A stretch of 64,000 bases of DNA from Erwinia aphidicola (GTDB lineage: Bacteria > Pseudomonadota > Gammaproteobacteria > Enterobacterales > Enterobacteriaceae): the NCBI RefSeq assembly GCF_024169515.1, contig NZ_JAMKCQ010000001.1, positions 930,001 through 994,000 on the forward strand, read 5' to 3'. Shown here piece after piece: positions 29,316-59,643 of this stretch. Made by a program: the position numbers and the translations under genes. Position 1 is the stretch's first letter, and each line of letters begins with the position of its first letter. The notes below the pieces were generated by a model. That model was not told where the DNA came from and did not search any database. It saw only the letters and a list, made by a program, of their open reading frames with translations.

Positions 29316-30635
29316 ATGCACCAGGCTATTGCTGACTTTGTGAAAGAGATTGCGCCACGCCTGCAGGCACAGCGCCGCGACCTGCATAAATTTGCCGAAT
29401 CCGGCTGGCTGGAGTTCCGCACCGCCACGCTGGTCGCCGCTGAACTGCATCGTCTTGGCTACGCGCTGCAGCTCGGCAAAGAGGTGGTCAACGCCGAAGC
29501 GCGCATGGGGCTGCCCCCCGCGCACGTGCTGGCCCAACACGAACAGCGCGCGCTTGAGCAGGGGGCGCTGCCCGAATGGCTGCCGCACTTCTCCGGCGGC
29601 TTCTGCGCGATTGTCGCCACGCTGGCAACCGGCCGGCCCGGTCCGGTGATGGCATTTCGCGTCGATATGGATGCGCTCGACGTGGTTGAGAACCAGAGCG
29701 CGGAGCACCGCCCGCACGCCGAGGGCTTCGGCTCTATTAATCCAGGCATGATGCACGCCTGCGGCCACGACGGCCATACCACCATCGGACTCGGGCTCGC
29801 GGCGGTGCTGAAACAGTTCGCCGGGGAGCTGTGCGGCACAATTAAGCTGATTTTCCAGCCTGCCGAAGAGGGCACGCGCGGCGCGAAATCGATGGTTGCA
29901 GCGGGGGTGGTCGACGATGTCGACTTCTTTACCGCTATTCACATCGGCACCGGGGTGCCCGCCGGGGAGCTGGTGTGCGGCAGCGATAACTTTATGGCCA
30001 CCACTAAGCTCGACGTTAGCTTTCGCGGCAATGCCGCCCATGCCGGAGCGCGCCCGGAAGAGGGCAGCAACGCCCTGCTGGCCGCCGCGCAGGCCGCGCT
30101 GGCGCTGCATACCCTGACTCAGCACAGCGGCGGCAGCGCCCGCGTCAACGTTGGCGTGTTGCAGGCAGGCACCGGGCGCAACGTCGTGGCCGACCGCGCG
30201 ATGATGAAGGTGGAAACCCGCGGTGCCACCAACGAAATCAACGACTTTATCTATCAACGCGCCCTGCAAACCCTGGCCGGTGCCGCCGCAATGTACGGTG
30301 TGGAACATCAGGTGACGCTGGTGGGTGCGGCGCGCAGCAGCCAGCCGACCGCGCCGTGGGTACGCTATATCCGCCGCCAGGCGCGGCATATTCCCGAGCT
30401 GACCTCGCTGGTGGACACGCGCGGTGCGGCCGCCGGTTCGGAAGATGCCACCTACATGATGGAGCGGGTAAAACAGCGCGGCGGCCAGGCCTCCTACATT
30501 ATTTTCGGCACCGAGCTGAGCGCCGGGCATCACAACGAAAAATTCGACTTCAACGAGCAGGTGATGGCCGTGGCGGTGAAGACCCTCGCGGCAATTGCCT
30601 TCAATATTGAACAGTTTGAGCCGGAGGCCGCATGA
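29316..30635 (+). CDS. abgA: p-Aminobenzoyl-glutamate hydrolase subunit A
   Basis: 439 residues from the ATG at 29316 (AAGGATGAACCG before it). M20 metallopeptidase: MMHACGHDGHTTIGLGLAA and IFQPAEEGTRGAKSMV bind the two metal ions; the dimerisation insert follows. With AbgB it cleaves p-aminobenzoyl-glutamate, a folate breakdown product, to p-aminobenzoate and glutamate. Its stop overlaps the abgB start (ATGA), matching the heterodimer. Confidence 0.93.
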   Translation: MHQAIADFVKEIAPRLQAQRRDLHKFAESGWLEFRTATLVAAELHRLGYALQLGKEVVNAEARMGLPPAHVLAQHEQRALEQGALPEWLPHFSGGFCAIVATLATGRPGPVMAFRVDMDALDVVENQSAEHRPHAEGFGSINPGMMHACGHDGHTTIGLGLAAVLKQFAGELCGTIKLIFQPAEEGTRGAKSMVAAGVVDDVDFFTAIHIGTGVPAGELVCGSDNFMATTKLDVSFRGNAAHAGARPEEGSNALLAAAQAALALHTLTQHSGGSARVNVGVLQAGTGRNVVADRAMMKVETRGATNEINDFIYQRALQTLAGAAAMYGVEHQVTLVGAARSSQPTAPWVRYIRRQARHIPELTSLVDTRGAAAGSEDATYMMERVKQRGGQASYIIFGTELSAGHHNEKFDFNEQVMAVAVKTLAAIAFNIEQFEPEAA

Positions 30636-32080
30636 ACCCTGAGATGAATGACTTTGTCGCCCGCTACATCGACCAGCATCAGGCGCGCTTTACCGCCTTA
30701 AGTGACGCCATCTGGGACCAGCCGGAAACGCGCTTTACGGAAACCTTCGCCGCCGGGCTGCTGTCCGGCGCGCTGGAACAGGAGGGTTTTCGCATAGAGC
30801 GGGCGGCGGGCGGTATCGAAACGGCATTTATTGCCAGCTACGGCAGCGGCCAGCCGGTGATTGCCTTGCTGGGCGAATATGACGCGCTGGCCGGCCTGAG
30901 CCAGCAGGCGGGAAGCAGCACGCGCACGCCGCTGGTGGCCGACGGCAACGGGCACGGCTGCGGGCATAACCTGCTCGGCACCGCCGCGCTGGCCGCCGCC
31001 TGCGCGCTCAAAGCCTGGTTACAACAGCATGGCACTAAGGGCACCCTCCGCTTTTACGGCTGCCCGGGCGAAGAGGGCGGTTCCGGTAAAACCTTTATGG
31101 TGCGCGAAGGGCTGTTTGACGACGTCGACGCCGCGCTCACCTGGCATCCTGAAGGGTTCAGCGGCATGTTTAATACCGCTACCCTCGCCAATATCCAGGC
31201 GGCTTTCCACTTCAGCGGCGTCGCCTCCCACGCCGCCAACGCCCCGCATCTCGGGCGCAGCGCGCTGGACGCCGTCACATTAATGAACACCGGCGCTAAC
31301 TTCCTGCGCGAACACATTATTCCTGAAGCGCGGCTGCACTATGCGGTGACCAACAGCGGGGGCAGTTCCCCCAATGTGGTGCAGGCGGAGGCGGAAGTGC
31401 TCTACCTGGTGCGCGCCCCGCAGCTCGACCAGCTGCAGGATATTTACCAGCGGCTGACCGATATTGCGCGCGGTGCAGCGCTGATGACCGGCACGGAAAT
31501 GACGCTGCGCTTTGAAAAAGCCTGCTCTAACTATCAGCCCAATCGGACGCTGGAACGGCTGATGTATCGCCAGCTCAGCCACTTCGGCCTGCCCGAATAC
31601 AGCCACGCTGAGCGCCAGTTTGCCAGCGAGATCCGCCAGACGCTGAGCGCGGACGATCTGCGCAACGCGGGCCTTAACGCCGCGCGTACCGGGGGGGATG
31701 CAGGCCGTAAATGGGTTGAGGAGTTGGGGGACCGCGTGCTGATGGACAGCGTGGCGCCCTACTGCGCCAGCGAGGAGGTACTTTACGGCTCCACCGACGT
31801 TGGCGACGTCAGCTGGGTGGCGCCAACCGCGCAGTGTTTCACCCCCTGCTTCGCCTTCGGCACCGCGCTGCACAGCTGGCAACTGGTCGCCCAGGGACGC
31901 ACGTCGATTGCCCATAAAGGCATGTCTCTTGCAAGTAAAACGCTGGCAGCGACCGCGCTGGCCCTGTTCAGCGATGCGCAGCTGCTGGCAGAGGCGCAGC
32001 AGGAGTTTCGCCAGCAGCGGGCAAAACAGCCCTATCACTGCCCTATTCCGGCCGGAGTAAAACCGACGCCGCTGGCATAA
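30632..32080 (+). CDS. abgB: p-Aminobenzoyl-glutamate hydrolase subunit B
   Basis: 482 residues of the M20 family. GNGHGCGHNLLGTAALAAAC and GCPGEEGGSGKTFMV carry metal ligands, and VSWVAPTAQCFTPCFAFGT is characteristic of AbgB. It forms the hydrolase with AbgA. It is followed by a 101-bp gap and then abgT. Confidence 0.94.
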   Translation: MNPEMNDFVARYIDQHQARFTALSDAIWDQPETRFTETFAAGLLSGALEQEGFRIERAAGGIETAFIASYGSGQPVIALLGEYDALAGLSQQAGSSTRTPLVADGNGHGCGHNLLGTAALAAACALKAWLQQHGTKGTLRFYGCPGEEGGSGKTFMVREGLFDDVDAALTWHPEGFSGMFNTATLANIQAAFHFSGVASHAANAPHLGRSALDAVTLMNTGANFLREHIIPEARLHYAVTNSGGSSPNVVQAEAEVLYLVRAPQLDQLQDIYQRLTDIARGAALMTGTEMTLRFEKACSNYQPNRTLERLMYRQLSHFGLPEYSHAERQFASEIRQTLSADDLRNAGLNAARTGGDAGRKWVEELGDRVLMDSVAPYCASEEVLYGSTDVGDVSWVAPTAQCFTPCFAFGTALHSWQLVAQGRTSIAHKGMSLASKTLAATALALFSDAQLLAEAQQEFRQQRAKQPYHCPIPAGVKPTPLA

Positions 32081-32181
32081 CGCATCAAGCACCACCCGGA
32101 GGCCTGGCTCGATCCCGGCCCCGTAAAAAAAACCAAAAAACGCAAACAACACCGTAACGACGACAAGGCTAAGGATGATCC

Positions 32182-33705
32182 ATGAGCGAAACCACAGCGG
32201 CCAACAAAAGCCCGGGAAAAATCTTTTACTGGATTGAGCGCATCGGCAACAAAGTGCCCAATCCGTTTCTGTTATTTGTTTACCTGATCGCGGTGCTGAT
32301 GGTGTCGACCGCGCTGCTCTCCTGGTTTGGCGTAGCGGTGAAAAACCCGGCCAGCGGCAAAATGGTCGAGGTAAAGAACCTGCTGAGCGTGGCGGGCATT
32401 CAGTGGATCCTGCCGAATATCATCAAGAACTTCAGCGGCTTTGCCCCGCTTGGCTCAATCCTTGCCCTGATGATCGGGGCCGGTTTAGCCGAGCGCACCG
32501 GGCTGCTGCAGGCGCTGATGAATAAGATGGCCTCGTTTGTCAGCGCCCGCTACGCCAGCTATATGGTGCTGTTTATCGCCTTCTTCAGCCATATCTCGTC
32601 CGATGCCGCGCTGGTGGTGATGCCGCCGCTCGGCGCGCTGATGTTTATCGCCGTCGGCCGCCACCCGGTCGCCGGGCTGCTGGCGGCGATTGCCGGAGTG
32701 GCTTCCGGCTTTACCGCTAACCTGCTGATTGTCACCACCGACGTGCTGCTCTCCGGCATCAGCAGCGAGGCAGCGAAAGCCATCAGCGATACGGTGCACG
32801 TCAGCGTAGTGGACAACTGGTTCTTTATGGCAAGTTCGGTGGTGGTACTGACGATTGCCGGCGGGCTGCTGACCGATAAATTTGTCGAGCCGCGCCTGCC
32901 CGCGTGGCAGGGCAGCAGTGAGGAGAAGCTCGCCAGCCTGACGCCGTTGCAGAACCGCGGCCTGCTGATGAGTGCGATTGCCGCCGCGGTGTTTATTGGT
33001 CTGGTCGCGCTGATGGTGGTGCCGGAAGGCTCGATGCTGCGCGATCCGGCCAGCGGTTCGATCATTCCCTCGCCGTTTATCAAAGGCATCGTACCGCTGA
33101 TTATTCTGTTCTTCTTTGTGGTGGCGATTACCTACGGCGTGGCGACGAAGCAGATTAAACGCCCGGACGACGTGCCCGCCCTGTTGATTGAGCCGATGAA
33201 GAGTATGGCCGGATTTATCGTGATGGTGTTTCCGCTGGCCCAGTTTGTCGCCATGTTTAACTGGAGCAACATGGGAACGTTTATGGCGGTCGGGCTGACC
33301 GACCTGCTGGAGCAGCTGGCGATGACCGGCGCCCCGGCGTTTATCGGCCTGATGTTCCTGTCGGCATTTCTGTGCATGTTTATCGCCAGCGGTTCGGCTA
33401 TCTGGTCGATTCTCGCGCCGATTTTCGTACCGATGTTTATGCTGCTTGGCTTCCATCCGGCTTTTGCACAGATGATTTTCCGCATCGCCGACTCCGCCGT
33501 GCTGCCGCTGTCGCCAATGTCCCCTTTCCTGCCGCTGTTCCTCGGCTTCCTGCAGCGCTACCGCAAAGATGCGCAGCTCGGCACTTACTACACGCTGATC
33601 GTGCCGTACCCGCTGGTGTTTTTCGCCGTGTGGATTGCACTGCTGCTGGCGTGGTATGCGCTGGGCCTGCCGATTGGACCGGGCGTGTACCCGGCAATGC
33701 CGTAG
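32182..33705 (+). CDS. abgT: p-Aminobenzoyl-glutamate transporter
   Basis: 507 residues with about 12-13 membrane segments, the AbgT family. IERIGNKVPNPFLLFVYLI at the start, ISSDAALVVMPPLGALMF and IASGSAIWSILAPIFVPM are family signatures; the last two are in the re-entrant hairpins of the structure. It imports p-aminobenzoyl-glutamate; relatives also export sulfonamides. AAGGATGATCC precedes the ATG. Last gene of the abg operon; repeats and then the AT-rich island follow. Confidence 0.95.
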   Translation: MSETTAANKSPGKIFYWIERIGNKVPNPFLLFVYLIAVLMVSTALLSWFGVAVKNPASGKMVEVKNLLSVAGIQWILPNIIKNFSGFAPLGSILALMIGAGLAERTGLLQALMNKMASFVSARYASYMVLFIAFFSHISSDAALVVMPPLGALMFIAVGRHPVAGLLAAIAGVASGFTANLLIVTTDVLLSGISSEAAKAISDTVHVSVVDNWFFMASSVVVLTIAGGLLTDKFVEPRLPAWQGSSEEKLASLTPLQNRGLLMSAIAAAVFIGLVALMVVPEGSMLRDPASGSIIPSPFIKGIVPLIILFFFVVAITYGVATKQIKRPDDVPALLIEPMKSMAGFIVMVFPLAQFVAMFNWSNMGTFMAVGLTDLLEQLAMTGAPAFIGLMFLSAFLCMFIASGSAIWSILAPIFVPMFMLLGFHPAFAQMIFRIADSAVLPLSPMSPFLPLFLGFLQRYRKDAQLGTYYTLIVPYPLVFFAVWIALLLAWYALGLPIGPGVYPAMP

Positions 33706-33712
33706 GATCTTT

Positions 33713-33787
33713 GTAGGGGCTGACCTTTTTTCCGGTCAGCCCTGAATACCGATACAGGGCCGATCGGAAAAGATGATCGGCCCCTAC
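33713..33787. repeat. Pair of palindromic repeats at the left edge of the AT-rich island
   Basis: 33713-33742 (GTAGGGGCTGACC...GGTCAGCCC) and 33757-33787 (GGGCCGATCGGAAAAGATGA then TCGGCCCCTAC) face each other, so GTAGGGG and CCCCTAC bracket a 75-bp unit. Confidence 0.8.
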
Positions 33788-34105
33788 ACTGTGCACACAA
33801 AACATTTATTATCCATTTATAAACGCCACCATATCTATTTCGTCAAAAAACCACTTTACCTAACAAAAAAATGCCACATTCGCCATCAGCAGATTTTCAT
33901 TTAAAAAATAGAACCCATACAGAAGACATAAATGATAAATACCTCATTAAATTCAATAAGGTATCATCATGCGATCCCAAACTAATAAAACCCAACAATT
34001 TAACGAAAGAAAACTTTTTTAGTAAAAAACACAATTCAATTCAAAAACCAAAGCGAGTATTAATAAAAATACTCATCAATTATGGTGAGAAAAAAGGAGT
34101 AAGCA

Positions 34106-34261
34106 ATGTCTAAATTATCTAAAGAGATAGCTAAAAACCAGGCTGAGGTCATCACGTCCAAAGATAGAAATGAAGAGAAGAAAGCATTAGCACAATCTAT
34201 GCTTGACAGCATCTCTGGCGGCTGGGTTAATGCCTTTGCTCGCTGGGGAAAAAGCTTTTAA
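34106..34261 (+). CDS. RiPP precursor peptide, XyeA-like (triceptide class)
   Basis: A 51-residue peptide. The start ATG at 34106 follows AAGGAG by 6 bp. The leader (residues 1-39) is lysine- and glutamate-rich and ends LDSISGG, a double-glycine site for the C39 exporter peptidase. The core is WVNAFARWGKSF. WVN, FAR and WGK each have an aromatic residue then any residue then N/R/K, the pattern that radical SAM cyclophane synthases link into three-residue rings. The next genes are exactly the maturase and export genes expected. I recognise the class (XYE) but cannot say that this core is new. Confidence 0.88.
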   Translation: MSKLSKEIAKNQAEVITSKDRNEEKKALAQSMLDSISGGWVNAFARWGKSF

Positions 34262-34270
34262 TTAGCATCT

Positions 34271-34296
34271 GATACAGGGTGATTTAGCCCTGTATC
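34271..34296 (+). promoter_or_regulatory. Hairpin between precursor and maturase genes
   Basis: GATACAGGG and CCCTGTATC form a perfect 9-bp stem with an 8-nt loop, 10 bp after the precursor stop. The following bases (ATTTG) are a poor T-run, so it probably acts as a partial terminator or mRNA end that leaves more precursor than enzyme transcript, as is common in RiPP operons. Confidence 0.65.
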
Positions 34297-34298
34297 AT

Positions 34299-35489
34299 TT
34301 GAAAAACTGGAGCCAAAATGACCTTAAAAAAATAAAGCACCTTGAAATAATCTTAAAAGTCAGTGAAAGATGCAACATCAATTGCTCTTACTGCTACATG
34401 TATAATTTAGGGAATAACATTTCGATAAAATCAAAACCTGTAATCCCCTTCTCTGTAGTTAAAGACTTAAGGAACTTCTTTGAACAAGCAACTAAAGAAC
34501 ATGAAATTGAAACTATTCAGGTTGATTTTCATGGTGGCGAACCACTGATGATGGGTAAGGAAAGATTTGAAGTAGCTTGTGATGAGTTAGCCAAAGGCCA
34601 TTACAAAAACACAAAACTGAACATGGCATGTCAAACAAACGCAACACTCATCGATGATGAGTGGATCGAGGTTTTTTCAAAATACAACATCAGTGTTGGT
34701 ATCTCTATTGACGGACCCAAACATATCAATGATAAACACCGGCTTGATAAAAAAGGGCGTAGTACATATGATAAAAAAGTAAACGGCTTAAAGATGCTAC
34801 AAAAAGCGTGGCAAGAAGGAAAACTAGCCGATGAGCCGGGCATTTTATGCGTAGCAAATCAATCAGTTAATGGAGCGGAGATTTATCGACATTTTGTTGA
34901 TGATTTAAAATCTAAAAAATTTGATTTTCTTATTCCTGACGAAAGCCATGATACTTGTTCGAATCCAGATGGATTGTCAAAATTTTATTGCGATGCAATG
35001 GATGAGTTTTTTTCTGACGCTAATAAGAATGTCTATGTCAGGTACTTTCATACCCATATGCAGTCAATGTTAAGTCAGGAATTCCGTCCGGTAATGGGGA
35101 TCAGCAAATCAAATGATGATATTCTTGCTTTCACAGTCTGTTCTAATGGTGATATATATATTGACGATACTCTCAGAGCCACTAATGATTCCATCTTCAC
35201 GCCAATTGGTAACATTAAAAACTTGACATTATCCGATGCGCTGTCTTCATGGCAGATGAAAAAGTATATTTTGATAAAAAAAACATTGCCAGAAAACTGC
35301 ACTGACTGCGTATGGAAAAAAATATGTGGTGGTGGACGTCATATTCAGCGCTACTCAAAGGATGATGACTTCAACCGTGAAACAGTATTCTGCCCCTCAA
35401 TAAGAAAAATCATGAGCCGGGCGGCCTCTCACCTGATATCATCTGGCATTCCGGAAGAAAAAATAATGATGAATCTGGAGATAATATAA
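34299..35489 (+). CDS. Radical SAM/SPASM cyclophane synthase, XyeB-like
   Basis: 396 residues in the long frame from TTG at 34299. CNINCSYC (Cys25, 29, 32) binds the SAM [4Fe-4S] cluster; GGEP is at 79-82. The C-terminal SPASM part has Cys281, 334, 337, 343 and 365 (CTDCVWKKICGGGRHIQRYS). It should install C-C links on the precursor core. The start is odd: TTG 34299 has no SD, whereas an ATG at 34318 has GGAG 5 bp before it but is out of frame by one; a -1 slip on the A7 run at 34326-34332 would join it and give MTLKKIKHL. The stop overlaps the next ATG by one base. Confidence 0.9.
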   Translation: MKNWSQNDLKKIKHLEIILKVSERCNINCSYCYMYNLGNNISIKSKPVIPFSVVKDLRNFFEQATKEHEIETIQVDFHGGEPLMMGKERFEVACDELAKGHYKNTKLNMACQTNATLIDDEWIEVFSKYNISVGISIDGPKHINDKHRLDKKGRSTYDKKVNGLKMLQKAWQEGKLADEPGILCVANQSVNGAEIYRHFVDDLKSKKFDFLIPDESHDTCSNPDGLSKFYCDAMDEFFSDANKNVYVRYFHTHMQSMLSQEFRPVMGISKSNDDILAFTVCSNGDIYIDDTLRATNDSIFTPIGNIKNLTLSDALSSWQMKKYILIKKTLPENCTDCVWKKICGGGRHIQRYSKDDDFNRETVFCPSIRKIMSRAASHLISSGIPEEKIMMNLEII

Positions 35490-36349
35490 TGACCAGGATT
35501 TTTATTTTTTTGATATTAATCTCTCTCAATTGCATGGCTGATACCATTACTGACTCATGGCGATTACGATATGATGAGCGTGGATTACCATTAATAGATG
35601 TAAAGATTGCTGACCGCTATCACACCCTGATGTTAGATACGGGTAGTGGGCAAGGTTTACACCTCTATTTATACAATTTAGAAGCTATTATTGCCAACCC
35701 AAGTATCGATGCCATAAAACTTACCTCGCGTCGAATGATAGATATAACTGGGCTTGATAACAACATTCCTGTATGGAAAATCGATAAACTTCGTATTTCC
35801 AACACTATATTTCATAATGTCGAAGCCGCTGGCTTCAAACCATGGGGACTGACGGTGGGAGGAAAACAACCCATTAGTGAAGTTTTGGGGTTAGGTGTCT
35901 TTCAGGACCAAAAAATCCTTATAGACTTCAAAAACGACAAATTAAAAACACTTAAAAACCTTCCAGCCAATATTAAAAACTGGTCATCTTTCCCAATTAA
36001 AAAAACAGACTCTGGGTTAAGAATCTCTGTTAATGCCAATCAAAAAAAACTAAATTTGATTATTGACACTGCAGCCAGTCACTCATTTCTTTTTTCAGAC
36101 CGCTTACCGAAGAACATGAAATTTTCAGGCTGCCGTAGCATTGAGCCTGAAGCATCGAATTTAGATTGCACGGTAGCAAAAATAACATTAAAAGATAATA
36201 AAGACAAAATCACAAATAGTTTAGCCATGGTGACAAATAGCGTAACACCTAAGGAATTAGATTTTGATGGTTTGTTGGGCATGAATTTTATGCGTGGCCA
36301 CCAAATAATCATTGATACAGAAAAACAAATGCTGTATTTAAGAAAGTAG
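35489..36349 (+). CDS. Secreted two-lobed aspartyl protease-like protein
   Basis: 286 residues. A signal peptide (MTRIFIFLILISLNCMA) predicts periplasmic location. Two aspartyl motifs, LDTGSG (Asp50) and IDTAAS (Asp193), each start a similar half, and each half ends in a hydrophobic-hydrophobic-G element (VLGLGVF, GLLGMNF), the layout of a single-chain pepsin-like or duplicated retropepsin fold. Directly coupled to the maturase gene. It may trim the exported peptide or protect the producer; neither is shown. The second motif has DTA in place of DTG. Confidence 0.75.
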   Translation: MTRIFIFLILISLNCMADTITDSWRLRYDERGLPLIDVKIADRYHTLMLDTGSGQGLHLYLYNLEAIIANPSIDAIKLTSRRMIDITGLDNNIPVWKIDKLRISNTIFHNVEAAGFKPWGLTVGGKQPISEVLGLGVFQDQKILIDFKNDKLKTLKNLPANIKNWSSFPIKKTDSGLRISVNANQKKLNLIIDTAASHSFLFSDRLPKNMKFSGCRSIEPEASNLDCTVAKITLKDNKDKITNSLAMVTNSVTPKELDFDGLLGMNFMRGHQIIIDTEKQMLYLRK

Positions 36350-36353
36350 CCCC

Positions 36354-37571
36354 ATGAAAGAACGGAATTCAATTTTTAGGCCAGAATCCCTGAAATTCAA
36401 AAAAGACGCATGGCTGGGGAGTTTTACTGTATCGACGCCTTCTGTACTTCCTGCCGCCCTAGGGTGTGCCATTGCGGTCATAATCATCTTTGTCATTCTA
36501 TCATTTACAACATATTCTAAGAAGGTTCCAGTAAATGGTCGCATAATTTACAACCCAGCAGCAGTAGAGGTTGTATTTAATCAAGATGGTATAATAGATA
36601 ACATCGCTGTAAATCAGGGGAGGAAAGTAAAAAAAGGAGACACTATTGCCAGCATTTCACATGATGTTTCCTACGCTGGTGGTGGAATGAATAAATCATT
36701 ACAGGATGCAGCTCAAAGCCAACTTAACAAACTTCAAAAACGAGAAGTTGAGCGACATCAAGAGGGAGAGAAAGAACGCCAGCTCTTGCTAAGAATGATC
36801 AGTACCAAATCCGCAGAAATTTCCGCTATACACCTTGCAATCACCACTGAACTTGAGCGCCAAATCAGTTTAAAAAAACGCCTGGGCTTTTATCAAAAAT
36901 TACTCGAAAAAGGTGTTTCTACCGTACAAGAAAAAAACGAGCGAGAAAATGATTATTACAACACTTCCACCCAAATAAATATGCAAAAAATTAATTTATT
37001 ACGTGCACAAGGGGAGAAAATTCAACTTGAGGATGAACTTTCCCATTCCAGTTCAAAAGAAAATCAATATATTACCGACATATACCAGCAAAAAGTCACG
37101 CTGCAACAGAAAATAATCAGTGCATCTGCTGTGGTTGAATCCAGGGTTTTAGCTCCCAGAGATGGCATTATAACATCAATGAGCATATTTGAAGGTCAGA
37201 GAGTCAGTGCAGGTAAAGTTGCCGCAGTTATTGTACCAGAAAACTCCCACCCATTTATCGAAATGTGGCTCCCACCCTTTGCGTTGCAAGAAGTAAAATT
37301 AGGCCAACACGTTATGCTGCGGGTTGAATCATTACCCTGGGAATGGTTTGGCAAAATACACGGTAAGGTCACAACTATAAGTTTAAGCCCTGAATTAATT
37401 ACGGGTAGCAATCAACGTTTTCGTATACTTATAACCCCAGATGCCACTACACAGATTCTTCCTGCTGGAGTCAAGGTTGAAGCAGATATAATGACTTCGC
37501 ATCGGAGAATTTGGGAATGGATCTTCTCACCAGTTAAAAATAGCATTCAAAGAATTTTGAATGAGGAATAA
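36354..37571 (+). CDS. HlyD-family periplasmic adaptor of peptide exporter
   Basis: 405 residues. One N-terminal membrane anchor (about 34-54, ALGCAIAVIIIFVILSF), a lipoyl half-motif (VVFNQDGIIDNIAVNQGRKV, KKGDTIASIS), a long coiled coil (about 120-240), the second lipoyl half (VLAPRDGIITSM) and a C-terminal barrel. It links the ABC exporter to an outer-membrane channel, presumably an unlinked TolC. It lies 4 bp after the protease gene and 3 bp before the exporter gene. Confidence 0.92.
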   Translation: MKERNSIFRPESLKFKKDAWLGSFTVSTPSVLPAALGCAIAVIIIFVILSFTTYSKKVPVNGRIIYNPAAVEVVFNQDGIIDNIAVNQGRKVKKGDTIASISHDVSYAGGGMNKSLQDAAQSQLNKLQKREVERHQEGEKERQLLLRMISTKSAEISAIHLAITTELERQISLKKRLGFYQKLLEKGVSTVQEKNERENDYYNTSTQINMQKINLLRAQGEKIQLEDELSHSSSKENQYITDIYQQKVTLQQKIISASAVVESRVLAPRDGIITSMSIFEGQRVSAGKVAAVIVPENSHPFIEMWLPPFALQEVKLGQHVMLRVESLPWEWFGKIHGKVTTISLSPELITGSNQRFRILITPDATTQILPAGVKVEADIMTSHRRIWEWIFSPVKNSIQRILNEE

Positions 37572-37574
37572 CAG

Positions 37575-39650
37575 ATGATTTTTTCATGGAAGAAAACACC
37601 TCTGACTTTACAATCGGAGACAAATGAGTGTGGATTAGCATGCCTGGTAATGATAGCAGGATATTTCAGAAAAAAAATGGATTTAGCTTCAGCACGTTTA
37701 ATTCATGAGGCGTCCCGTCATGGAATGACATTGAGAGAACTTGTCGCCGCCTTTGACAGAATTGAAATGACGGCTCGCGCTGCAAGAATCGAGCTTAACG
37801 AACTTCGCTTATTATCATACCCAGTCATACTCCATTGGTCATTCAATCACTTTGTAGTACTTGTCAAGATAACTCGACGTGGTGCTATTATTCATGATCC
37901 TGCCACTGGCAGAAGAAATATATCATTACGTGAACTTTCTGATAAGTTTACTGGTATAATACTTGAAGCATGGCCCACTGAAAAATTCGATAAAAAACCA
38001 TTAAAAATGAATGTTAAAACAACTGATCTTTTTCATGGAATCAGGGGGATTCGAACGATTTTCTCAGGTGTTTTGCTGCTATCAGTTTTGTTAGAACTAC
38101 TGTCGATAGCTGTGCCAGCAGCGTCACAATTTACTATCGACATACTGGTTCGCTCATCAGATCGTGAAGGCATAATTTTAGTGGGATTTGTTGTTATCAC
38201 TGCGTTACTGATCAAAGGTGCTTTTTCATTGGTAAGAGCTTGGGTATTGATGAATCTTCGCTATACGCTTAGCGTCAAGTGGGCTGAAATGTTCTTTAAT
38301 AGACTAATTCAATTAACATTAGCATTTTTCGAAAAGCGCCACACCGGGGATATAGCATCGCGTTTTCAATCATTAACGGCCATTCAGGAGGCTTTTACTG
38401 CTGATATGGTAGCCTCGATACTCGATGCTATTGTCATCATTATCTCGTTAACTATCATTATTAACTACTCTGCTGTTTTGTCTATGGGGCCAATTTTTGC
38501 AGCCACCATTTTCATTGCCATAAAATTGAGCATGTTTTCAGTATACCGGATGAGTAAAATAGAGCATATCACCTCTGAAGCGTTACAATCATCTCATTTC
38601 CTCGAAACGGTTAGAGCCATAAGTGCTATAAAGATGCTTAATTTAGCCCCCATCCGTCGACATGAGTGGCTAAATCATGTTGTCAATAGTACTCATGCAG
38701 GAAACAAAATATTCAAATTAGATCTTCTGACAAACACTGCAGCAGCTCTTCTCATCGGACTATCGAGTATTTATGTACTAAGTATCGGAGCTGTAGGGCT
38801 TGATAATGGGATAACTACAGGAACATTATTAGCGATAATAATTTATTCTGACATGGTCATTTCTCGTACTATTAAAGTCGTCAACGCAATTTCTGACTTC
38901 TGTCTGTTATCAATGCATAGTCAACGCTTGACTGATATTGCTGTTTCGCCTATTGAGCAAGCACAAGATAACCCTCACCATCTTAAATTCAATGGAAATG
39001 TTATTATAAGGAATTTATCCTTTCGACATTCACCTAATGAGGAAAATATATTTGAAGGTATAAATATTGAGATTATGGATGGGGAGAACATAGCTATTGT
39101 AGGACCCTCTGGCTGTGGTAAATCAACGCTCCTTCATGTTATTTCTGGTCTCTACGCCCCTACTGATGGTGAGATTTTTATTAATGGCATTAACACATCA
39201 CGCATTGGAAAAGAGAACTTTAGAGAAAATGTTTGTTTCGTTATGCAAGATGATAAATTATTAGCGGGCACCATAAAGAAAAACATAACTGGTTTTTCAG
39301 AAAACCCAGACGTCGAGCGAATGTTAGAATGTGCAAAATATGCATCGATTGATAAAGAAATTTGCAATTTCTCATTGGGCTATGACTCAATGATTGGCGA
39401 TATTGGCAGTACCCTCTCAGGTGGACAGCGCCAACGTATTTCTATTGCCAGGGCACTTTACCGGCAACCTAAAATTTTGCTACTTGACGAAGCAACAAGC
39501 GATCTTGATATTGAAAACGAAAAAAAAATCACCCTCGCTATTAGTAATCTGTCAATCACACGTATTTTTGTCGCTCATCGCCCTGAAATGGTCAAATCAG
39601 CAGACCGCGTGTTTAATCTTCAATTGAAAAAATGGATCAAAAATATTTAA
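37575..39650 (+). CDS. Peptidase-containing ABC exporter (C39 type)
   Basis: 691 residues. The N-terminal C39 domain (about 1-135) has Gln13, Cys19 (ETNECGLACLVMIAGY), His92 (HWSFNHFVVL) and Asp108 (HDPATG), so it should be active and cut after the GG of the precursor leader. Six membrane segments follow (about 165-440), then the nucleotide-binding domain with Walker A GPSGCGKST near 510, LSGGQRQR near 613 and ILLLDEATSDLD near 634. It removes the leader and exports the core peptide with the HlyD adaptor. Confidence 0.95.
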   Translation: MIFSWKKTPLTLQSETNECGLACLVMIAGYFRKKMDLASARLIHEASRHGMTLRELVAAFDRIEMTARAARIELNELRLLSYPVILHWSFNHFVVLVKITRRGAIIHDPATGRRNISLRELSDKFTGIILEAWPTEKFDKKPLKMNVKTTDLFHGIRGIRTIFSGVLLLSVLLELLSIAVPAASQFTIDILVRSSDREGIILVGFVVITALLIKGAFSLVRAWVLMNLRYTLSVKWAEMFFNRLIQLTLAFFEKRHTGDIASRFQSLTAIQEAFTADMVASILDAIVIIISLTIIINYSAVLSMGPIFAATIFIAIKLSMFSVYRMSKIEHITSEALQSSHFLETVRAISAIKMLNLAPIRRHEWLNHVVNSTHAGNKIFKLDLLTNTAAALLIGLSSIYVLSIGAVGLDNGITTGTLLAIIIYSDMVISRTIKVVNAISDFCLLSMHSQRLTDIAVSPIEQAQDNPHHLKFNGNVIIRNLSFRHSPNEENIFEGINIEIMDGENIAIVGPSGCGKSTLLHVISGLYAPTDGEIFINGINTSRIGKENFRENVCFVMQDDKLLAGTIKKNITGFSENPDVERMLECAKYASIDKEICNFSLGYDSMIGDIGSTLSGGQRQRISIARALYRQPKILLLDEATSDLDIENEKKITLAISNLSITRIFVAHRPEMVKSADRVFNLQLKKWIKNI

Positions 39651-39720
39651 TATTTATTTACATATTACACTTGTTGGCAATACCCTATTATATAAATATA
39701 AAATCACTCATAAAGAATAT

Positions 39721-39740
39721 GGGGCGGGGCTTGCCCCGCC
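39721..39740. repeat. Palindrome at the right edge of the AT-rich island
   Basis: GGGGCGGGGCTTGCCCCGCC is a short hairpin related to the dispersed repeat and marks the point where the base composition returns to GC-rich. Confidence 0.6.
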
Positions 39741-40978: not shown

Positions 40979-41384
40979 AATGCTGTTCCTTTTATCAGCT
41001 CAAATCAGACCACAATCAGAAGCGGAATAAACCACTCATTGATTAGCCTAAGCGATACTTCGTAACTCGCCAGCAACAGCCGAAGGGGATTAACGCATGA
41101 ATTGTAAATAGAAATCCATTGAAAAATTTAATTAATCCGCTGAAAAACATCAATAAGATTAACGTTATCTAATTGTTGTTTAGGTTATATTGATGTTAAA
41201 TATCGCAGCAGCGATTTTTTAGCACAAAACGGCGCTTAAACATCAAGTCTGTTTATCAACATTATGCTGCTGTTGTCATGGCTGGTTACACGCACTGCGC
41301 TACGATGCGTCAAGAAAACCCCTCTCGCCGGCCCTAAAATAGCCGGCTCACTCTGACTTCTTTTTACCTTCAACGCGGGCAACT
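40979..41384. promoter_or_regulatory. Divergent region between oxalate decarboxylase and mdcR
   Basis: About 400 bp, AT-rich in the middle (41100-41250), with no supportable gene. It should hold promoters for both divergent genes. I found no clear repeat or RNA signal. Confidence 0.5.
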
Positions 41385-42314
41385 ATGAAAATCGATTCGG
41401 ATATCACTTTTCGTAAGCTGGAGATCTTCATCGCCTTTATGAGCCGTGGCAACCTGGCACGCACCGCAGAAGCGCTGGGGATCAGCAGCGTCAGCGTTCA
41501 CCGCGCCCTGCACAGCCTGGAAGAGAGCGTGCGCTGCCCGCTATTTATCCATCAGGGACGCAACCTGGTGCCGCTGCCCGCGGCGCAAACCCTGTGGGAA
41601 TACAGTCAGGAGGCGCTGGATACCCTGTCGCGCGGCGTGGAGGAGACGCGTAAAGCGGCGGGTATCGGCCAGGGGCATATTCGCCTGGGCACGCTCTACT
41701 CGCTGACGCTGGAAACCATTCCGAAGCTGATTATGGGGATGAAGCTGCGCCGCCCGGACCTCGAAATGGAGCTGACGATGGGGTCGAATCAGCTGCTCAC
41801 CACAAAGCTGGAGGATGGCTATCTTGATGCCATTCTGATTGCGGTGACGCCTGGCGAGATCGACTACAGCCGCTTTGAAATGCTGCCGCTGTTCGATGAC
41901 GATATCTTTCTGGCGGCTCCGGCCGCTTCCGGGCTGGACACCAGCTTCCCCGCCGATCTGCGCGATTTTCGCCAGCAGAAATTTGTCTCGCTGGCGGAAG
42001 GATTTGCTACCTGGCAGGGCTTTCAGGAGGCGTTTAACGTTGCCGGATATGAGCCGGATATTGTCACCAGGGTAAACGATATTTTTTCTATGCTGAGCCT
42101 GGTGCAGGCGGGTGTCGGCTATACCCTGCTGCCGGGGAGGATGAAAAAAGTGTATGAAAATTCGGTGCAGCTGCTGCCGCTGGCGGAGCCATACCAGATG
42201 CGCCAGAACATCGCGATTGTCTTCGAGCGCAACCGCGAGCATGACCCCAACCTGCTGGCGCTGGTGGCGGAAGGCCGCATGTACAGCCGCCAGCGTCAGC
42301 AAACTAAGGCTTAA
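41385..42314 (+). CDS. mdcR: LysR-family malonate-utilisation regulator
   Basis: 309 residues. FRKLEIFIAFMSRGNLARTA and ISSVSVHRALHSLEESVRCP make the LysR helix-turn-helix; ATWQGFQEAFNVAGYEPDI and ERNREHDPNLLALV are typical of MdcR. It should activate mdc genes with malonate. It converges on mdcH, and the two coding ends overlap by 11 bp (42304-42314), so it is at the far end of the operon it controls. Confidence 0.88.
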   Translation: MKIDSDITFRKLEIFIAFMSRGNLARTAEALGISSVSVHRALHSLEESVRCPLFIHQGRNLVPLPAAQTLWEYSQEALDTLSRGVEETRKAAGIGQGHIRLGTLYSLTLETIPKLIMGMKLRRPDLEMELTMGSNQLLTTKLEDGYLDAILIAVTPGEIDYSRFEMLPLFDDDIFLAAPAASGLDTSFPADLRDFRQQKFVSLAEGFATWQGFQEAFNVAGYEPDIVTRVNDIFSMLSLVQAGVGYTLLPGRMKKVYENSVQLLPLAEPYQMRQNIAIVFERNREHDPNLLALVAEGRMYSRQRQQTKA

Positions 42315-43206
42315 TTCGCGCCACCAGGCGGCGGGCCAGCAGCAGCCCGCCCTGCTCCAGCGCTATCGCCTCCCCACGAGATAACGGCCCGCGCGTTAGC
42401 CCCGTCAGCACCGCGCCGGGCGGCATCTCAATCGCCAGCCCGACTTCCCGCTCGTTCGCCGCCACCATGGCTTCATGCCAGCGCACGGTACGCGCCATGT
42501 TCTGCGCCAGATCGTCGGCGATCTGCTGCGGCTGCCACAGCACGCGGGCGCTGCTGCCGCTGAGATAAGCACAGCGCGGGCGCTGGAGGGTTAACCTGTT
42601 GAAGGCGGCCGCCAGCTTAGCCGCCGGAGCGGCCATTAGCGCGCAGTGCGAAGGCACACTCACCGCCAGCCGATGCACTTTCTGCGCCCCGGCGGCCAGC
42701 GCTTTGTCTGCTACCTGCGCCATCAGCGCATCGCTACCGGCAATCACCAGCTGCTGCGGCGCGTTGATATTCGCCAGATAACAGCCCGTCTCCAGCAGCG
42801 GTTCCAGCTGCTGCTGCTCCAGCCCGACAATGGCCGTCAGGCCGTAGCCCTGCGGATAAGCCTGCTCCATCAGCGCGCCGCGCAGCGACACCAGCCGCAG
42901 CGCATCGTCAAACGCCAGCGCCCCGGCAACCACCGCCGCCGGAAACGCACCGATCGACAGGCCGCAGGTGATATCCGCTTCCACCCCCTGCCGCTGCAGC
43001 GCGTGCGCATGCGCCACTGCGGTAATCAGCAGGCACAGCTGCACAGCCCGCGTGTGCTGCAGCGCCTGCGCACCGTCAAGCGCTCGGGCATCCTCATGCA
43101 ATACTTCACTGGCGCGATCCAGCAGCGCATCCCCCTGCGGCAGCTGTTGCAGCATCCCGGGGCGCTGTGGCCCCTGGCCGGGAAAGGTGAACAGCACTTT
43201 CATCAT
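42304..43206 (-). CDS. mdcH: Malonate decarboxylase epsilon subunit (malonyltransferase)
   Basis: 300 residues. FTFPGQGPQRPGML at the start and CGLSIGAFPAAVVAG with the acyl-serine in GLSIG identify a malonyl-CoA:ACP transacylase fold. MdcH loads malonyl onto the MdcC prosthetic thiol and starts the catalytic cycle. It overlaps mdcG by 4 bp and is the last mdc gene on this strand. Confidence 0.93.
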   Translation of the reverse strand: MMKVLFTFPGQGPQRPGMLQQLPQGDALLDRASEVLHEDARALDGAQALQHTRAVQLCLLITAVAHAHALQRQGVEADITCGLSIGAFPAAVVAGALAFDDALRLVSLRGALMEQAYPQGYGLTAIVGLEQQQLEPLLETGCYLANINAPQQLVIAGSDALMAQVADKALAAGAQKVHRLAVSVPSHCALMAAPAAKLAAAFNRLTLQRPRCAYLSGSSARVLWQPQQIADDLAQNMARTVRWHEAMVAANEREVGLAIEMPPGAVLTGLTRGPLSRGEAIALEQGGLLLARRLVARIKP

Positions 43207-43811
43207 GGGCTACTCCACGGCTGAGCGGTGAGGCGCGGGCCAAGGTTGGTTTTCAGCAGAACCTGACCATCGCGCAGCCATTCATTGAGGGCAAAGGCAC
43301 CGTACGGCGTTTCGACCTGGGTATCGACCCGGCACGGCAGCTGGCTGACAAACGCCTGCCAGCGCCGCAGCTCCGTCTCCGCGGCCGGATGCGGGCAGCG
43401 GATCAGCAGGTCGAGATCGCTGGTCGCTGACAGCACCGGCACTTCGGTCGCCAGCGCGTAGCCGACGCTGCCGGTAATGCCCCAGGGCCACCACCAGCGC
43501 TGCTGCGCCAGCTGGATCGCCGCCTGCACCGGCTGCTGCGAAACAAACGGCGAGGCCAGCAGCCGCTCCACGCTGCTGAACGCTTCCGGGTTTTGTACAT
43601 GCTCGATGTCAGCGGCAGCCACCCAACCGGCCGCACGCTCCTCGCGCCGCAGCCCGCGCACGCCAACCGGGACACGCCCGTTCTCATCGCTGTCGCGGCG
43701 CACCACCAGCGGCAGCGCGCTGCGCCACTGGCTGCTGACCCAGGCGGGCAGATCGCCCGTCAAAGCCTGCGAGTGGCGGATCCAGACCAGATCGTGGGGC
43801 GTATAAGTCAT
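43203..43811 (-). CDS. mdcG: Phosphoribosyl-dephospho-CoA transferase
   Basis: 202 residues. YTPHDLVWIRHSQAL, PLVVRRDSDENGRVPVGVRG and the nucleotidyltransferase-like SATSDLDLLIRCP are MdcG landmarks. It attaches the 2'-(5''-triphosphoribosyl)-3'-dephospho-CoA made by MdcB to Ser25 of MdcC. It lies 1 bp after mdcF and overlaps mdcH. Confidence 0.94.
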   Translation of the reverse strand: MTYTPHDLVWIRHSQALTGDLPAWVSSQWRSALPLVVRRDSDENGRVPVGVRGLRREERAAGWVAAADIEHVQNPEAFSSVERLLASPFVSQQPVQAAIQLAQQRWWWPWGITGSVGYALATEVPVLSATSDLDLLIRCPHPAAETELRRWQAFVSQLPCRVDTQVETPYGAFALNEWLRDGQVLLKTNLGPRLTAQPWSSP

Positions 43812-43812
43812 A

Positions 43813-44772
43813 TCAGAGTCCTGCAGTCAGCGTAATAAATAGCGGTAAGGTAATAATACATAACAGCGAACTGATCAGCAGCGTGGCTTCCGCGTCCGGC
43901 GAATAGACGCCAAAACGGTTGCCAAATACCACGCCGAAGAAACCCGCCGACAGCGCAATCATCAGAATGCCGGTCACGGCAACACGCCCATGCAGCCCGA
44001 ACAACAGCACCAGTCCCCATGCGATAAAGGGCTCGATCAGCATGGTGGTAAGGCTGGAGATCACCACGATCCGGCTGAGCTTCAGTTTGCGCGCAGAGAG
44101 AATAACGCCGGTCAGAAACAACGCAGCCGCCGTCGCGGACAGCCCGAGAGGATGGATCGCCGCCAGCACCAGGTCCGGCATTTTCAGCTGCACCCCGGAC
44201 AAGACAACCCCAAGCAGCGGCCCCCAGACTATCGGTTTGGTGACGGAACGCCACATCAGCAGTGGCAGCATCCCTATTCCGCCATGCTGACTATGGCCCG
44301 CTGCACGCGCTTTTTCACGCTCAAGGATCAGCAGGCAGAAGGGCGTCATCAGCACCGAGCCGCAGGCAATCGATGCCGCCACCGACAGTGAGGTTGCTGG
44401 CCCTGGCCCCAGCACGCTACCGAGGATCGGCAGGCCCAGCGCGGCATAGTTAGGCAGTGCCACGGTGAGCGTCAGCACTGCCGCATCCTGCGGTGACTTA
44501 TGAAAGTATCGGGTACTAATAAAATAGATCGCGGCATAGGTCACCCACATGGTTAATGCCAGCACCACAATCAGCGGGGACTGCGCAATAATACCCTGCC
44601 ACGGCGTCTGGACGGTCGCGCCAAATAGCGCAGCGGGCAGGGCGAAATCCATCACAAAGATATTCAGCGTCACGACGTTTTTATTATCAACCATTCCGGC
44701 TTTACCCGCATAAAAGCCGAGTAACATGATGACAAAAATAGGGGCAAGAGCATGGATAATAACGTAAGTCAT
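43813..44772 (-). CDS. mdcF: AEC-family malonate transporter
   Basis: 319 residues with about ten membrane segments, auxin efflux carrier family. ALPNYAALGLPILGSVLGPG and SAGFFGVVFGNRFGVYSPDA are the two crossing-helix regions. Within mdc operons this protein is malonate transporter MdcF; the use of an AEC protein rather than MdcL/MdcM is the Klebsiella-type arrangement. It follows mdcE after a 131-bp gap with an inverted repeat. Confidence 0.9.
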   Translation of the reverse strand: MTYVIIHALAPIFVIMLLGFYAGKAGMVDNKNVVTLNIFVMDFALPAALFGATVQTPWQGIIAQSPLIVVLALTMWVTYAAIYFISTRYFHKSPQDAAVLTLTVALPNYAALGLPILGSVLGPGPATSLSVAASIACGSVLMTPFCLLILEREKARAAGHSQHGGIGMLPLLMWRSVTKPIVWGPLLGVVLSGVQLKMPDLVLAAIHPLGLSATAAALFLTGVILSARKLKLSRIVVISSLTTMLIEPFIAWGLVLLFGLHGRVAVTGILMIALSAGFFGVVFGNRFGVYSPDAEATLLISSLLCIITLPLFITLTAGL

Positions 44773-44827
44773 AGCATCACCTGTTAGTTAACGCCGCGCG
44801 CAGGCGCGACAATTATTATTGTTTTCA

Positions 44828-44863
44828 GGCGGGAGTGAGGGCTATTTGCTTGCTGCTCCCGCC
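44828..44863. repeat. Inverted repeat between mdcE and mdcF
   Basis: GGCGGGAG (44828-44835) and CTCCCGCC (44856-44863) can pair around a 20-nt loop. There is no T-run on either side, so it is more likely a stability or processing hairpin between the enzyme genes and mdcFGH. Confidence 0.55.
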
Positions 44864-44903
44864 CTGCAGGTAGTTATGTTACTTATTGCCGTCAGGTGGC
44901 CGT

Positions 44904-45710
44904 TCACCAGGCCGCGCGCATTCTCTCACGCACCGCTTTCGAGCTGCGGCGATGCTCCGCCTGCAAACGGCACTGCAGACCCGGATCGCGCCGGGCTGCC
45001 GTCACGGCATCGTTCAGCGCCTGCTGCACCTGCTTAACGTCAGCCTCATCGGGCGCGTCCGGCTGGCGGATATTCAGCAGCGCTTCCAGCAGCCCCAGCG
45101 AGTGGTAATTTTTGATGTCGTAGGCCATCGGTGGAATGGTCTGAGCCAGTTTTTCCAGCGCCGCAACGCTGCGCAGGGTGATACGCGCCGCAGCCTCTTT
45201 ACCCATCGCGTGGATCTGTACGCCCGGGTCGTTAAAGGCAATCAGCCGGTTGGCCTGATAGCCGTGCGCGAGGAAGGCGCCGGACATCGCCTTGCCGACG
45301 ATCAGTCCGATGACGATATGCCCGGCGAGACGCGCTTCGGCATAGGCTCCGGCGGCGGCGGCCAGCGCCTGATGTATGCCAAAAGCCTCTTCCCGGCGGC
45401 CGTAGGCCTGGCTTGGCACATCAATCACGGCGATAATCAGCCGCTTGCCTGCTTTACCCGCATCCTGCTGCACCGCTTCACTGACCACTTTCGCCAGCGT
45501 CCAGCCCTCCAGCAGCCCGACCTCACCGCCCGCCGCTCGCGGATAGTGGTTAGCGGCATCCGGCACCACCGCGATAAAGCGTGCGGCCTCGCCGTTCAGC
45601 TCGCCATCCGCAGCCTGTACCGATGGGCAGAGCCCGGGCAGCCGGCTGGCACCGGCGGTGAGCTGTTGCAGCCAGGTTTCGCCGCGTGTGATGGTTTTTT
45701 TCATCCTCAA
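44904..45710 (-). CDS. mdcE: Malonate decarboxylase gamma subunit
   Basis: 268 residues, crotonase-like carboxyltransferase fold. FIAVVPDAANHYPRAAGGEV, PSQAYGRREEAFGIHQAL and IVGKAMSGAFLAHGYQANRL fit MdcE. With MdcD it forms the decarboxylase that turns malonyl-S-MdcC into acetyl-S-MdcC plus CO2. It overlaps mdcD by 4 bp. Confidence 0.94.
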   Translation of the reverse strand: MRMKKTITRGETWLQQLTAGASRLPGLCPSVQAADGELNGEAARFIAVVPDAANHYPRAAGGEVGLLEGWTLAKVVSEAVQQDAGKAGKRLIIAVIDVPSQAYGRREEAFGIHQALAAAAGAYAEARLAGHIVIGLIVGKAMSGAFLAHGYQANRLIAFNDPGVQIHAMGKEAAARITLRSVAALEKLAQTIPPMAYDIKNYHSLGLLEALLNIRQPDAPDEADVKQVQQALNDAVTAARRDPGLQCRLQAEHRRSSKAVRERMRAAW

Positions 45711-46537
45711 TCCTCCCTGCTAAAGAGCTGTGTAATCCGCTGCGCATCCGCCTGCTGGCGGCTGTCGAACTGCGTCAGGCGCGGCAGATACTCCTGCCAG
45801 CGCTGCGAACGATGCTGCGCAGGAATGCCTTTTGCCAGCGCTGCGCGCATGGCGTTCTTTACTGCCTGCTGGCCATCCGCTACCAGCGTATCCACCAGCC
45901 CGCTGCGCGCGCGCACTTCGCCGCCGGTCATGCTCCAGATAAACGGCCGGTCGCGGGAGTCGTACTCGTCGATCCCCGCCTCCTGCTCTATCACCTGCGG
46001 ACCATTCAACCCGAGGCGTGCTTCGCGGGTGGCGATCAGCGTGCTGCACAGCCCGGCGGCTATCGACATGCCGCCAAAGCAGCCAACGGTCCCGGCGATG
46101 ATGCCAATAACCGGGGTGTAACGGCGCAGGTCGACGATTGCCGCATGGATATCTGCAATCGCCGCCAGCCCGAGGTTGGCTTCTTGCAGGCGCACGCCGC
46201 CGGTTTCAAAGCACAGTACGGCACGGGTTGGCGTGCCGTTACGGTTATCTTCTGCGGCCAGTTCAAGCGCGGCCGCCATTTTGGCCCCGGACACTTCGCC
46301 CATGCTGCCGCCCTGGAAAGCCCCTTCGATGGCGATGGCGACCGCGGGCTGGCCGTCAATGGTGCCCTTTGCCACGACCATGCCATCATCCGCCTGCGGC
46401 ACGACGCCCTGCGCAGCAAGCCACGGCGACATGACGCCGTCAAACGGGTCGAGCAGTTCGCGGTAGCTGCCCTCATCCAGCAGCAGTCGTGCGCGCTGGC
46501 GGGCATTAAGCTCGATAAAACTGCGGTCGTTACGCAT
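45707..46537 (-). CDS. mdcD: Malonate decarboxylase beta subunit
   Basis: 276 residues from the ATG at 46537; the longer frame to 46597 runs into mdcC. SFIELNARQRARLLLDEGSY, GAFQGGSMGEVSGAKMAAAL and GTVGCFGGMSIAAGL are the carboxyltransferase landmarks. It overlaps mdcC by 8 bp and mdcE by 4 bp, as expected for subunits of one complex. Confidence 0.94.
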   Translation of the reverse strand: MRNDRSFIELNARQRARLLLDEGSYRELLDPFDGVMSPWLAAQGVVPQADDGMVVAKGTIDGQPAVAIAIEGAFQGGSMGEVSGAKMAAALELAAEDNRNGTPTRAVLCFETGGVRLQEANLGLAAIADIHAAIVDLRRYTPVIGIIAGTVGCFGGMSIAAGLCSTLIATREARLGLNGPQVIEQEAGIDEYDSRDRPFIWSMTGGEVRARSGLVDTLVADGQQAVKNAMRAALAKGIPAQHRSQRWQEYLPRLTQFDSRQQADAQRITQLFSRED

Positions 46538-46829
46538 CGGCGACCTCCTCAAATACCTGTTCAATGCGGATGCGCGCCACGCCGGGCGTGGCGCCAAAAT
46601 CGTGGATGGTCATCTGCCCGGCGGGCAGTGCGCCCAGGCTGCTCAGGCGATTAAACAACGCCTGCCAGCGTGCAGCGCTGTTATCCACCGAGGTGGTGAC
46701 ATCGACCTGGAGGAGATCGCTATCACTGGCGATGTACAGCACCTCCATGTCGCCGGAGCCGACCACGCCCGCGAGCGCTCTACCGCTGAGCTGGCGCGAA
46801 GCCGGAAATGAAAACGTGAACTGTTGCAT
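46530..46829 (-). CDS. mdcC: Malonate decarboxylase acyl carrier protein
   Basis: 99 residues from the ATG at 46829; the upstream extension is translated repeat. Ser25 in GVVGSGDMEVLY is the attachment site for the phosphoribosyl-dephospho-CoA group, and FGATPGVARIRIEQVFEE is a conserved end. It carries acetyl/malonyl groups between MdcA, MdcD/E and MdcH. A 67-bp gap with a palindromic repeat separates it from mdcB. Confidence 0.94.
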   Translation of the reverse strand: MQQFTFSFPASRQLSGRALAGVVGSGDMEVLYIASDSDLLQVDVTTSVDNSAARWQALFNRLSSLGALPAGQMTIHDFGATPGVARIRIEQVFEEVADA

Positions 46830-59630: not shown

Positions 59631-59643
59631 ATGTACTGCTCCG

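What the first reader, a model, noticed from the sequence alone, without database searches (positions are those of the whole stretch)
34106..39650. Five-gene XYE/triceptide-type RiPP cluster
Precursor with GG leader, radical SAM/SPASM enzyme, secreted aspartyl protease-like protein, HlyD adaptor and C39 ABC exporter follow each other in one short operon with all catalytic residues visible. This is the layout of the XYE (Xenorhabdus, Yersinia, Erwinia) class that makes peptides with three-residue cyclophanes, some antibacterial. The class is known; whether this core peptide has been described cannot be judged here.
Basis: partly seen in the sequence, partly recalled or inferred. Interest (0 to 1): 0.88.

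Follow-up and report, generated by a model that had tools for sequence, protein, structure and literature searches.

The report
Erwinia triceptide cluster, maturase start broken
This is a horizontally acquired five-gene cluster of a known kind that makes a small ring-laced peptide, probably an antibacterial, but in this genome the ring-forming enzyme's normal start codon runs straight into a stop, so the cluster may be silent or weakly expressed.

Summary
Window 34106-39650 carries xyeA, xyeB, a secreted two-Asp aspartyl protease, an HlyD adaptor and a C39 peptidase/ABC exporter. XyeA (TIGR04495, 66 bits, cut-off 33) and XyeB (TIGR04496, 545 bits, cut-off 450) pass their NCBIfam cut-offs: a member of the described XYE triceptide class. 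The core WVNAFARWGKSF has three aromatic-X-X motifs and equals one deposited for Kosakonia cowanii. The host is an Erwinia (inferred). The 6-kb AT-rich insert stands where a same-species genome has a phosphatase-like gene; XyeB is in 4 of 37 genus genomes, own included.

A 99%-identical database protein begins MTLKKIKHLE, so intact copies exist. None of 42 runs of six or more bases differs in length over 57,352 bases aligned with the same-species genome, so a general assembly fault is unlikely; a local one is not excluded. The only in-frame start left is a TTG at the foot of a stable hairpin. Whether this strain makes the peptide is doubtful.

The parts
34106..34261 (+). xyeA, 51-aa precursor; leader ends LDSISGG
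   Evidence: TIGR04495 66 bits, cut-off 33; alignment with 9 homologues
34223..34258 (+). core WVNAFARWGKSF after GG; predicted rings W-V-N (34223-34231), F-A-R (34235-34243), W-G-K (34244-34252)
   Evidence: sequence; W-V-N and F-A-R conserved in 9 and 8 of 9 homologues; ring positions inferred from XncB chemistry as reviewed in PMC11002830 (passages)
34266..34301 (+). hairpin between xyeA and xyeB, -19.8 kcal/mol; hairpins lie at the same place in S. marcescens and X. bovienii
   Evidence: shuffles as stable 0 of 200 (window), 3 of 200 (L001), 1 of 200 (L010)
34299..35489 (+). xyeB frame as open from TTG; radical SAM/SPASM cyclophane maturase
   Evidence: TIGR04496 545 bits, cut-off 450; alignment
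34309..34335 (+). GGAG (34309-34312), ATG (34318) and the five-codon frame MTLKK* that ends just after an A-run (34326-34332): the likely natural xyeB start, out of frame with the rest
   Evidence: P0010 begins MTLKKIKHLE
35489..36349 (+). secreted pepsin-like aspartyl protease, two candidate catalytic Asp; its start shares a base with the xyeB stop
   Evidence: Pfam PF13650; both Asp invariant in 26 of 26 rows; AlphaFold model pLDDT 84.2 with pepsin-type matches
36354..37571 (+). HlyD-type periplasmic adaptor
   Evidence: Pfam HlyD_3
37575..39650 (+). C39 peptidase/ABC exporter
   Evidence: Pfam Peptidase_C39, ABC_membrane, ABC_tran
33704..39721 (.). stretch without counterpart in the same-species genome G297, which has about 1.5 kb with a phosphatase-like gene there

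Best explanation
A horizontally acquired XYE-type triceptide cluster in an Erwinia chromosome. XyeB would join three aromatic residues of the XyeA core to the residue two places on (W-N, F-R, W-K). The C39 exporter would cut after GG and export the 12-residue core with the HlyD adaptor. The secreted pepsin-like protease would trim the peptide or act on it outside the inner membrane. The product is most likely an antibacterial that binds BamA of Gram-negative competitors, as described for xenorceptides. In this genome the normal xyeB start is out of frame, so the enzyme is made poorly or not at all and the cluster is probably silent or decaying. Shown: gene content, family membership, order, replacement at a conserved site, frame break in the assembly. 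Inferred: ring formation, cleavage, role of the protease, target, silence.
For: Family models over cut-off. Same order in S. marcescens and X. bovienii. XncB forms Trp-Asn, Trp-Arg and Phe-Asn three-residue cyclophanes (PMC11002830, passages). A review says that xenorceptide A2 inserts as a strand into BamA (PMC12971899, passages; the reference it gives there looks like the wrong one). The core ends W-x-K-x-F like darobactin's WNWxKxF, whose Trp3-Lys5 C-C ring and BamA target are stated in PMC9055067 (passages). GC 0.35-0.40 in the cluster, about 0.52-0.67 in the flanks. Another gene at this site in a same-species genome. Frame break; in-frame near-identical protein P0010; 45 of 51 homologues P0010-P0060 start 5-11 residues before the conserved [H]LEI motif; 0 of 42 homopolymer runs of six or more bases differ in length from G297; indels under 30 bases that are not multiples of three all fall between genes there.
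Against: No expression, mass or activity data. The A-run could be a local assembly error: only 10 of the 42 compared runs have seven or more bases, so an error rate of some tens of percent for such runs is not excluded. The source of P0010 is not shown in the listing, and its DNA could not be read. The TTG at 34299 could give some enzyme. The rest of the xyeB frame has no internal stop, so any loss would be recent. BamA as target rests on resemblance alone. In one XyeB locus (L007) the adaptor follows XyeB directly with no protease gene between, so the protease is not universal next to XyeB.
Confidence: 0.8

Rival explanations
1. The cluster is fully active and the frame break is an artefact: a length error in an A-run of the assembly.
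For: Homopolymer runs are the classic place for such errors (recalled). P0010, 99% identical, is in frame. The other four genes align over their full length with relatives.
Against: No length difference in 42 runs of six or more bases over 57,352 aligned bases, and no short frame-breaking indel inside a gene in that stretch; but only 10 of those runs had seven or more bases.
Confidence: 0.25
2. The A-run is a functional frame switch: slippage of RNA polymerase or ribosome, or reversible change of run length between cells, sets how much XyeB is made.
For: The run starts in codon 3 and is followed at once by a stop, with GGAG before the ATG and a stable hairpin upstream; an in-frame sister protein exists.
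Against: A seven-base run is short for polymerase slippage (recalled). In S. marcescens and X. bovienii the gene is simply in frame. Chance mutation explains it as well.
Confidence: 0.12
3. XyeB is normally started at TTG 34299 and nothing is broken.
For: It is the only in-frame ATG, GTG or TTG before CxxxCxxC. The family model is matched in full.
Against: I see no ribosome-binding site before it; it lies in the outer pairs of a -19.8 kcal/mol hairpin; near-identical P0010 is listed from MTLKK, the downstream ATG.
Confidence: 0.12
4. The peptide is not an antibacterial but a signal or acts on a host.
For: Activity was not tested here, and the papers seen name activity for xenorceptides only.
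Against: W-x-K-x-F ending shared with darobactin; exporter with peptidase domain; sporadic distribution, which is suggestive only.
Confidence: 0.2

Closest known systems
XYE triceptides / xenorceptides (XyeA-XyeB family; XncB of Xenorhabdus)
   Same: Both family models over cut-off, GG leader, aromatic-X-X motifs in the core
   Different: Second motif F-A-R, where the cores of E. toletana (G325), Xenorhabdus BG5 (G160), G315 and G296 have F-A-N; maturase start out of frame. The XncA core itself was not seen in any call
Serratia marcescens MSU97 cluster and X. bovienii CS03 megaplasmid cluster
   Same: Five genes in the same order; XyeB 74 and 75% identical, exporter 74%
   Different: Their xyeB starts are in frame; cores WVNAFARWSKSF and WVNVFARWDKAI
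Darobactin (DarA-DarE)
   Same: Core ends W-x-K-x-F; a Trp-Lys C-C ring is expected; radical SAM/SPASM maturase
   Different: Maturase is not DarE (84 bits, cut-off 650); three separate rings expected, no ether ring

Membership tests
XYE triceptide cluster | precursor matches TIGR04495 over its cut-off | tested here: met
   66 bits against 33
XYE triceptide cluster | maturase matches TIGR04496 over its cut-off | tested here: met
   545 bits against 450
XYE triceptide cluster | aromatic-X-X motifs in the core after GG | tested here: met
   W-V-N, F-A-R, W-G-K
XYE triceptide cluster | precursor, maturase and C39 exporter together | tested here: met
XYE triceptide cluster | maturase gene translatable (a condition of function here, not of family membership) | tested here: inconclusive
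   ATG 34318 reads into TAA after five codons; a weak-looking TTG remains
XYE triceptide cluster | three-residue cyclophanes in the product | not testable with these tools
   needs mass spectrometry and NMR
BamA-binding xenorceptide | product binds BamA | not testable with these tools
   resemblance only
Darobactin | DarE maturase | tested here: not met
   84.4 bits against cut-off 650

The most novel reading that the evidence does not exclude
The A-run at the xyeB start is a frame switch that sets the maturase dose, and the F-A-R motif of this lineage is closed as a Phe-Arg cyclophane, a ring not among those that the review seen here lists for XncB (Trp-Asn, Trp-Arg, Phe-Asn).
Probability: 0.1. 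Interest if true: 0.6.

Novelty: new member of a known kind. Interest (0 to 1): 0.35.

Why it matters
XYE peptides belong to the BamA-inhibitor field, where each natural variant helps to tell which rings and side chains are needed. This one adds an Erwinia example of the F-A-R lineage with an F-A-L sister (P0001). It also shows that family hits over a cut-off can hide a maturase that may not be translated, which matters to anyone who picks clusters for expression from genome mining. The G315 hybrid (precursor, maturase and protease of one lineage, adaptor and exporter of the other) suggests that export and modification modules are exchanged in nature.

Tried and rejected
A degenerate DNA pattern in the own genome told nothing beyond the place of the window (G000:C1:930001-994000). 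Phages: 61 records hold an XyeB relative, all best places under 60% identity; 5 rows were listed, two named sulfatase maturases; I did not look for whole clusters there. E. coli complete genomes: no near match (megablast only). Plasmids: 11 records with a match, one with most of the cluster, X. bovienii. The genome-contig scan with XyeB gave 2 loci, one at 74% (S. marcescens) and one at 24%. Solved structures: the nearest to XyeB by sequence are ChlB and anaerobic sulfatase maturases; the protease profile reaches DDI1 retropepsin at E 0.0009.

Papers: family names were searched; one search was swamped by unrelated 'x year' text. For the protease's role, (four terms together) found 0 papers, and passages of a RiPP protease review (PMC10885120) do not contain 'aspartyl protease'. 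Passages of PMC12281569 and PMC9484694 only mention xenorceptides.

Considered and rejected: darobactin cluster (DarE 84 bits, cut-off 650); sulfatase maturase (176 bits, cut-off 349); a second XYE cluster in the genome (one XyeB; one XyeA). A PAP2 search in the own genome gave 5 matches, none at this site. The XyeA model matched 4 of 394 order genomes, own included, 3 over cut-off; that sample was not the same as that.

Full report
What is there. The five genes stand at 34106-39650 on the + strand as described. XyeA (51 aa) scores 66 bits against a cut-off of 33 and XyeB 545 against 450; in the 25 of 54 rows shown for XyeB no other model passes its cut-off. Pfam finds Radical_SAM, Asp_protease_2, HlyD_3, and Peptidase_C39 with both ABC parts. 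NCBIfam has no match for the protease at E 0.001.

The host. The genome has 4,929,485 bases in 3 contigs. G325, placed in the same genus, has a contig of 5,163,548 bases, the length listed for the Erwinia toletana protein P0039. The genus is Erwinia by this inference; no call named the species.

The core. After GG comes WVNAFARWGKSF. Of 9 database homologues of XyeA all 9 keep W-V-N and 8 keep F-A-R; the ninth, P0001, 98% identical to the window's precursor, has F-A-L. The K. cowanii core (P0005) is identical to the window's. Relatives fall into two groups: window, Serratia, X. bovienii, K. cowanii and Providencia with F-A-R; E. toletana, Xenorhabdus BG5 (G160, by the contig length of P0041), G315 and G296 with F-A-N. 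G069 has a shorter core without that motif. The review seen (PMC11002830, passages) lists Trp-Arg, Trp-Asn and Phe-Asn rings for XncB. Phe-Arg and Trp-Lys rings here are inferred, the latter by analogy with darobactin (PMC9055067, passages).

The break at the start of xyeB. GGAG (34309-34312) stands five bases before ATG 34318, which reads M T L K K and then TAA. The frame that matches the family is a different one. P0010, 99% identical and three residues or so apart from the window's protein, begins MTLKKIKHLE, that is, it goes on from such a start into the enzyme; so intact copies exist. Its source is not shown in the listing and its DNA could not be read. Of the 51 homologues P0010-P0060, 45 begin 5-11 residues before the conserved [H]LEI motif, two 12-13, one 33, and three lack the motif. 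In the window the only in-frame start before CxxxCxxC is TTG 34299; the first in-frame ATG, 34398, lies after that motif. The TTG has no ribosome-binding site that I can see and lies in the outer pairs of a hairpin of -19.8 kcal/mol (0 of 200 shuffles as stable). Hairpins lie at the same place in S. marcescens (3 of 200) and X. bovienii (1 of 200), so the hairpin is probably a feature of the operon between precursor and enzyme, and not made for a TTG start. xyeB stop and protease start share base 35489, so poor translation of xyeB may also lower the genes after it (inference).

Assembly fault or mutation. The window was aligned with the same-species genome G297 over 57,352 bases (hits over 500 bases). 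All 42 homopolymer runs of six or more bases in the window (32 of six, 9 of seven, 1 of eight) have the same length in both. Indels under 30 bases and not divisible by three lie at 20304, 29197, 40980-41375 and 59639-59679, all between the longer ATG-started ORFs kept. The assembly looks good, but only 10 runs of seven or more bases were available, so a fault at this one place is not excluded.

Origin and distribution. The cluster has GC 0.35-0.40, its flanks about 0.52-0.67. From 33704 to 39721 the window has the cluster where G297 has about 1.5 kb with a 421-aa protein that looks like a PAP2-type phosphatase (motifs recalled, not scanned). That protein's relatives lie at the same site in G300, G306 and G318, but not in the G305 stretch (3 of 4), so the phosphatase may be the older occupant. 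XyeB is found in 7 of 295 genomes of the family at E 1e-80, 5 over cut-off, and in 4 of 37 of the genus at E 1e-60, 3 over cut-off, own included in both. Of these 10 distinct genomes, 3 besides the window have xyeB in pieces (G162, G236, G296). G162 is 91% complete, so sequencing error may account for it.

Modules. In G315 precursor, maturase and protease resemble E. toletana's (58, 73, 55% identity), while adaptor and exporter resemble Serratia's (81, 86%) and not E. toletana's (30, 51%): a hybrid of the two lineages.

The protease. Both candidate catalytic Asp are invariant in 26 of 26 rows. The AlphaFold model (pLDDT 84.2, pTM 0.81) matches pepsin-type proteases (best E 2.2e-11, a Bacteroides endopeptidase; in the 50 rows listed, TM-score by query 0.47-0.61 and rmsd 5.6-10.6). 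A two-lobed pepsin-like protein is likely, though lobe placement is loose. In 12 distinct XyeB loci outside the window a protease match was found beside XyeB in 9. Of the 3 without, L007 has the adaptor directly after XyeB, so none lies there (that genome has a precursor-like and a protease match on another contig, L044); L004 shows none in about 1.5 kb downstream; L045 ends about 240 bases after XyeB. In a class-wide sample, at E 1e-25, only the own genome of 369 matched; few XYE genomes were in that sample. The link to these clusters is thus common but not universal, and the role is unproven.

Verdict. A genuine member of the XYE triceptides, with two points of interest: a maturase start that is out of frame in this genome, and an F-A-R ring whose chemistry the open papers seen here do not list. 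The paper searches were for family names and parts, in the held open-access library only; none of the listings and passages seen names this cluster, and I ran no search aimed at it. The founding papers (Nguyen 2020, Sugiyama 2022) were seen only in reference lists.

Noticed in passing
L034 (G315), 2398-8315: Hybrid XYE cluster: precursor, maturase and protease of the F-A-N lineage with adaptor and exporter of the F-A-R lineage.
   Followed up: partly
window 33704-39721 against G297, G300, G305, G306, G318: Variable spot between an abgT-like gene and a bicupin gene: phosphatase-like gene in G297, G300, G306 and G318, the XYE cluster here, neither in the G305 stretch.
   Followed up: partly
P0001: Precursor 98% identical to the window's with F-A-L instead of F-A-R, so the third position of the middle ring varies between very close relatives; source not shown.
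   Followed up: no
L008 (G236), about 1480-2645: Another xyeB whose start region looks disturbed (by eye) and whose body is in two pieces.
   Followed up: no
window 33707-33796: REP-like palindromic stretch at the left edge of the insert that matches many places in the genome; a different GC-rich palindrome lies at the right edge, 39721-39740.
   Followed up: no
window 29316-33705 and 42304-49466: Flanks look like abgA/abgB/abgT and a malonate decarboxylase set, by reading the ORFs; not tested.
   Followed up: no
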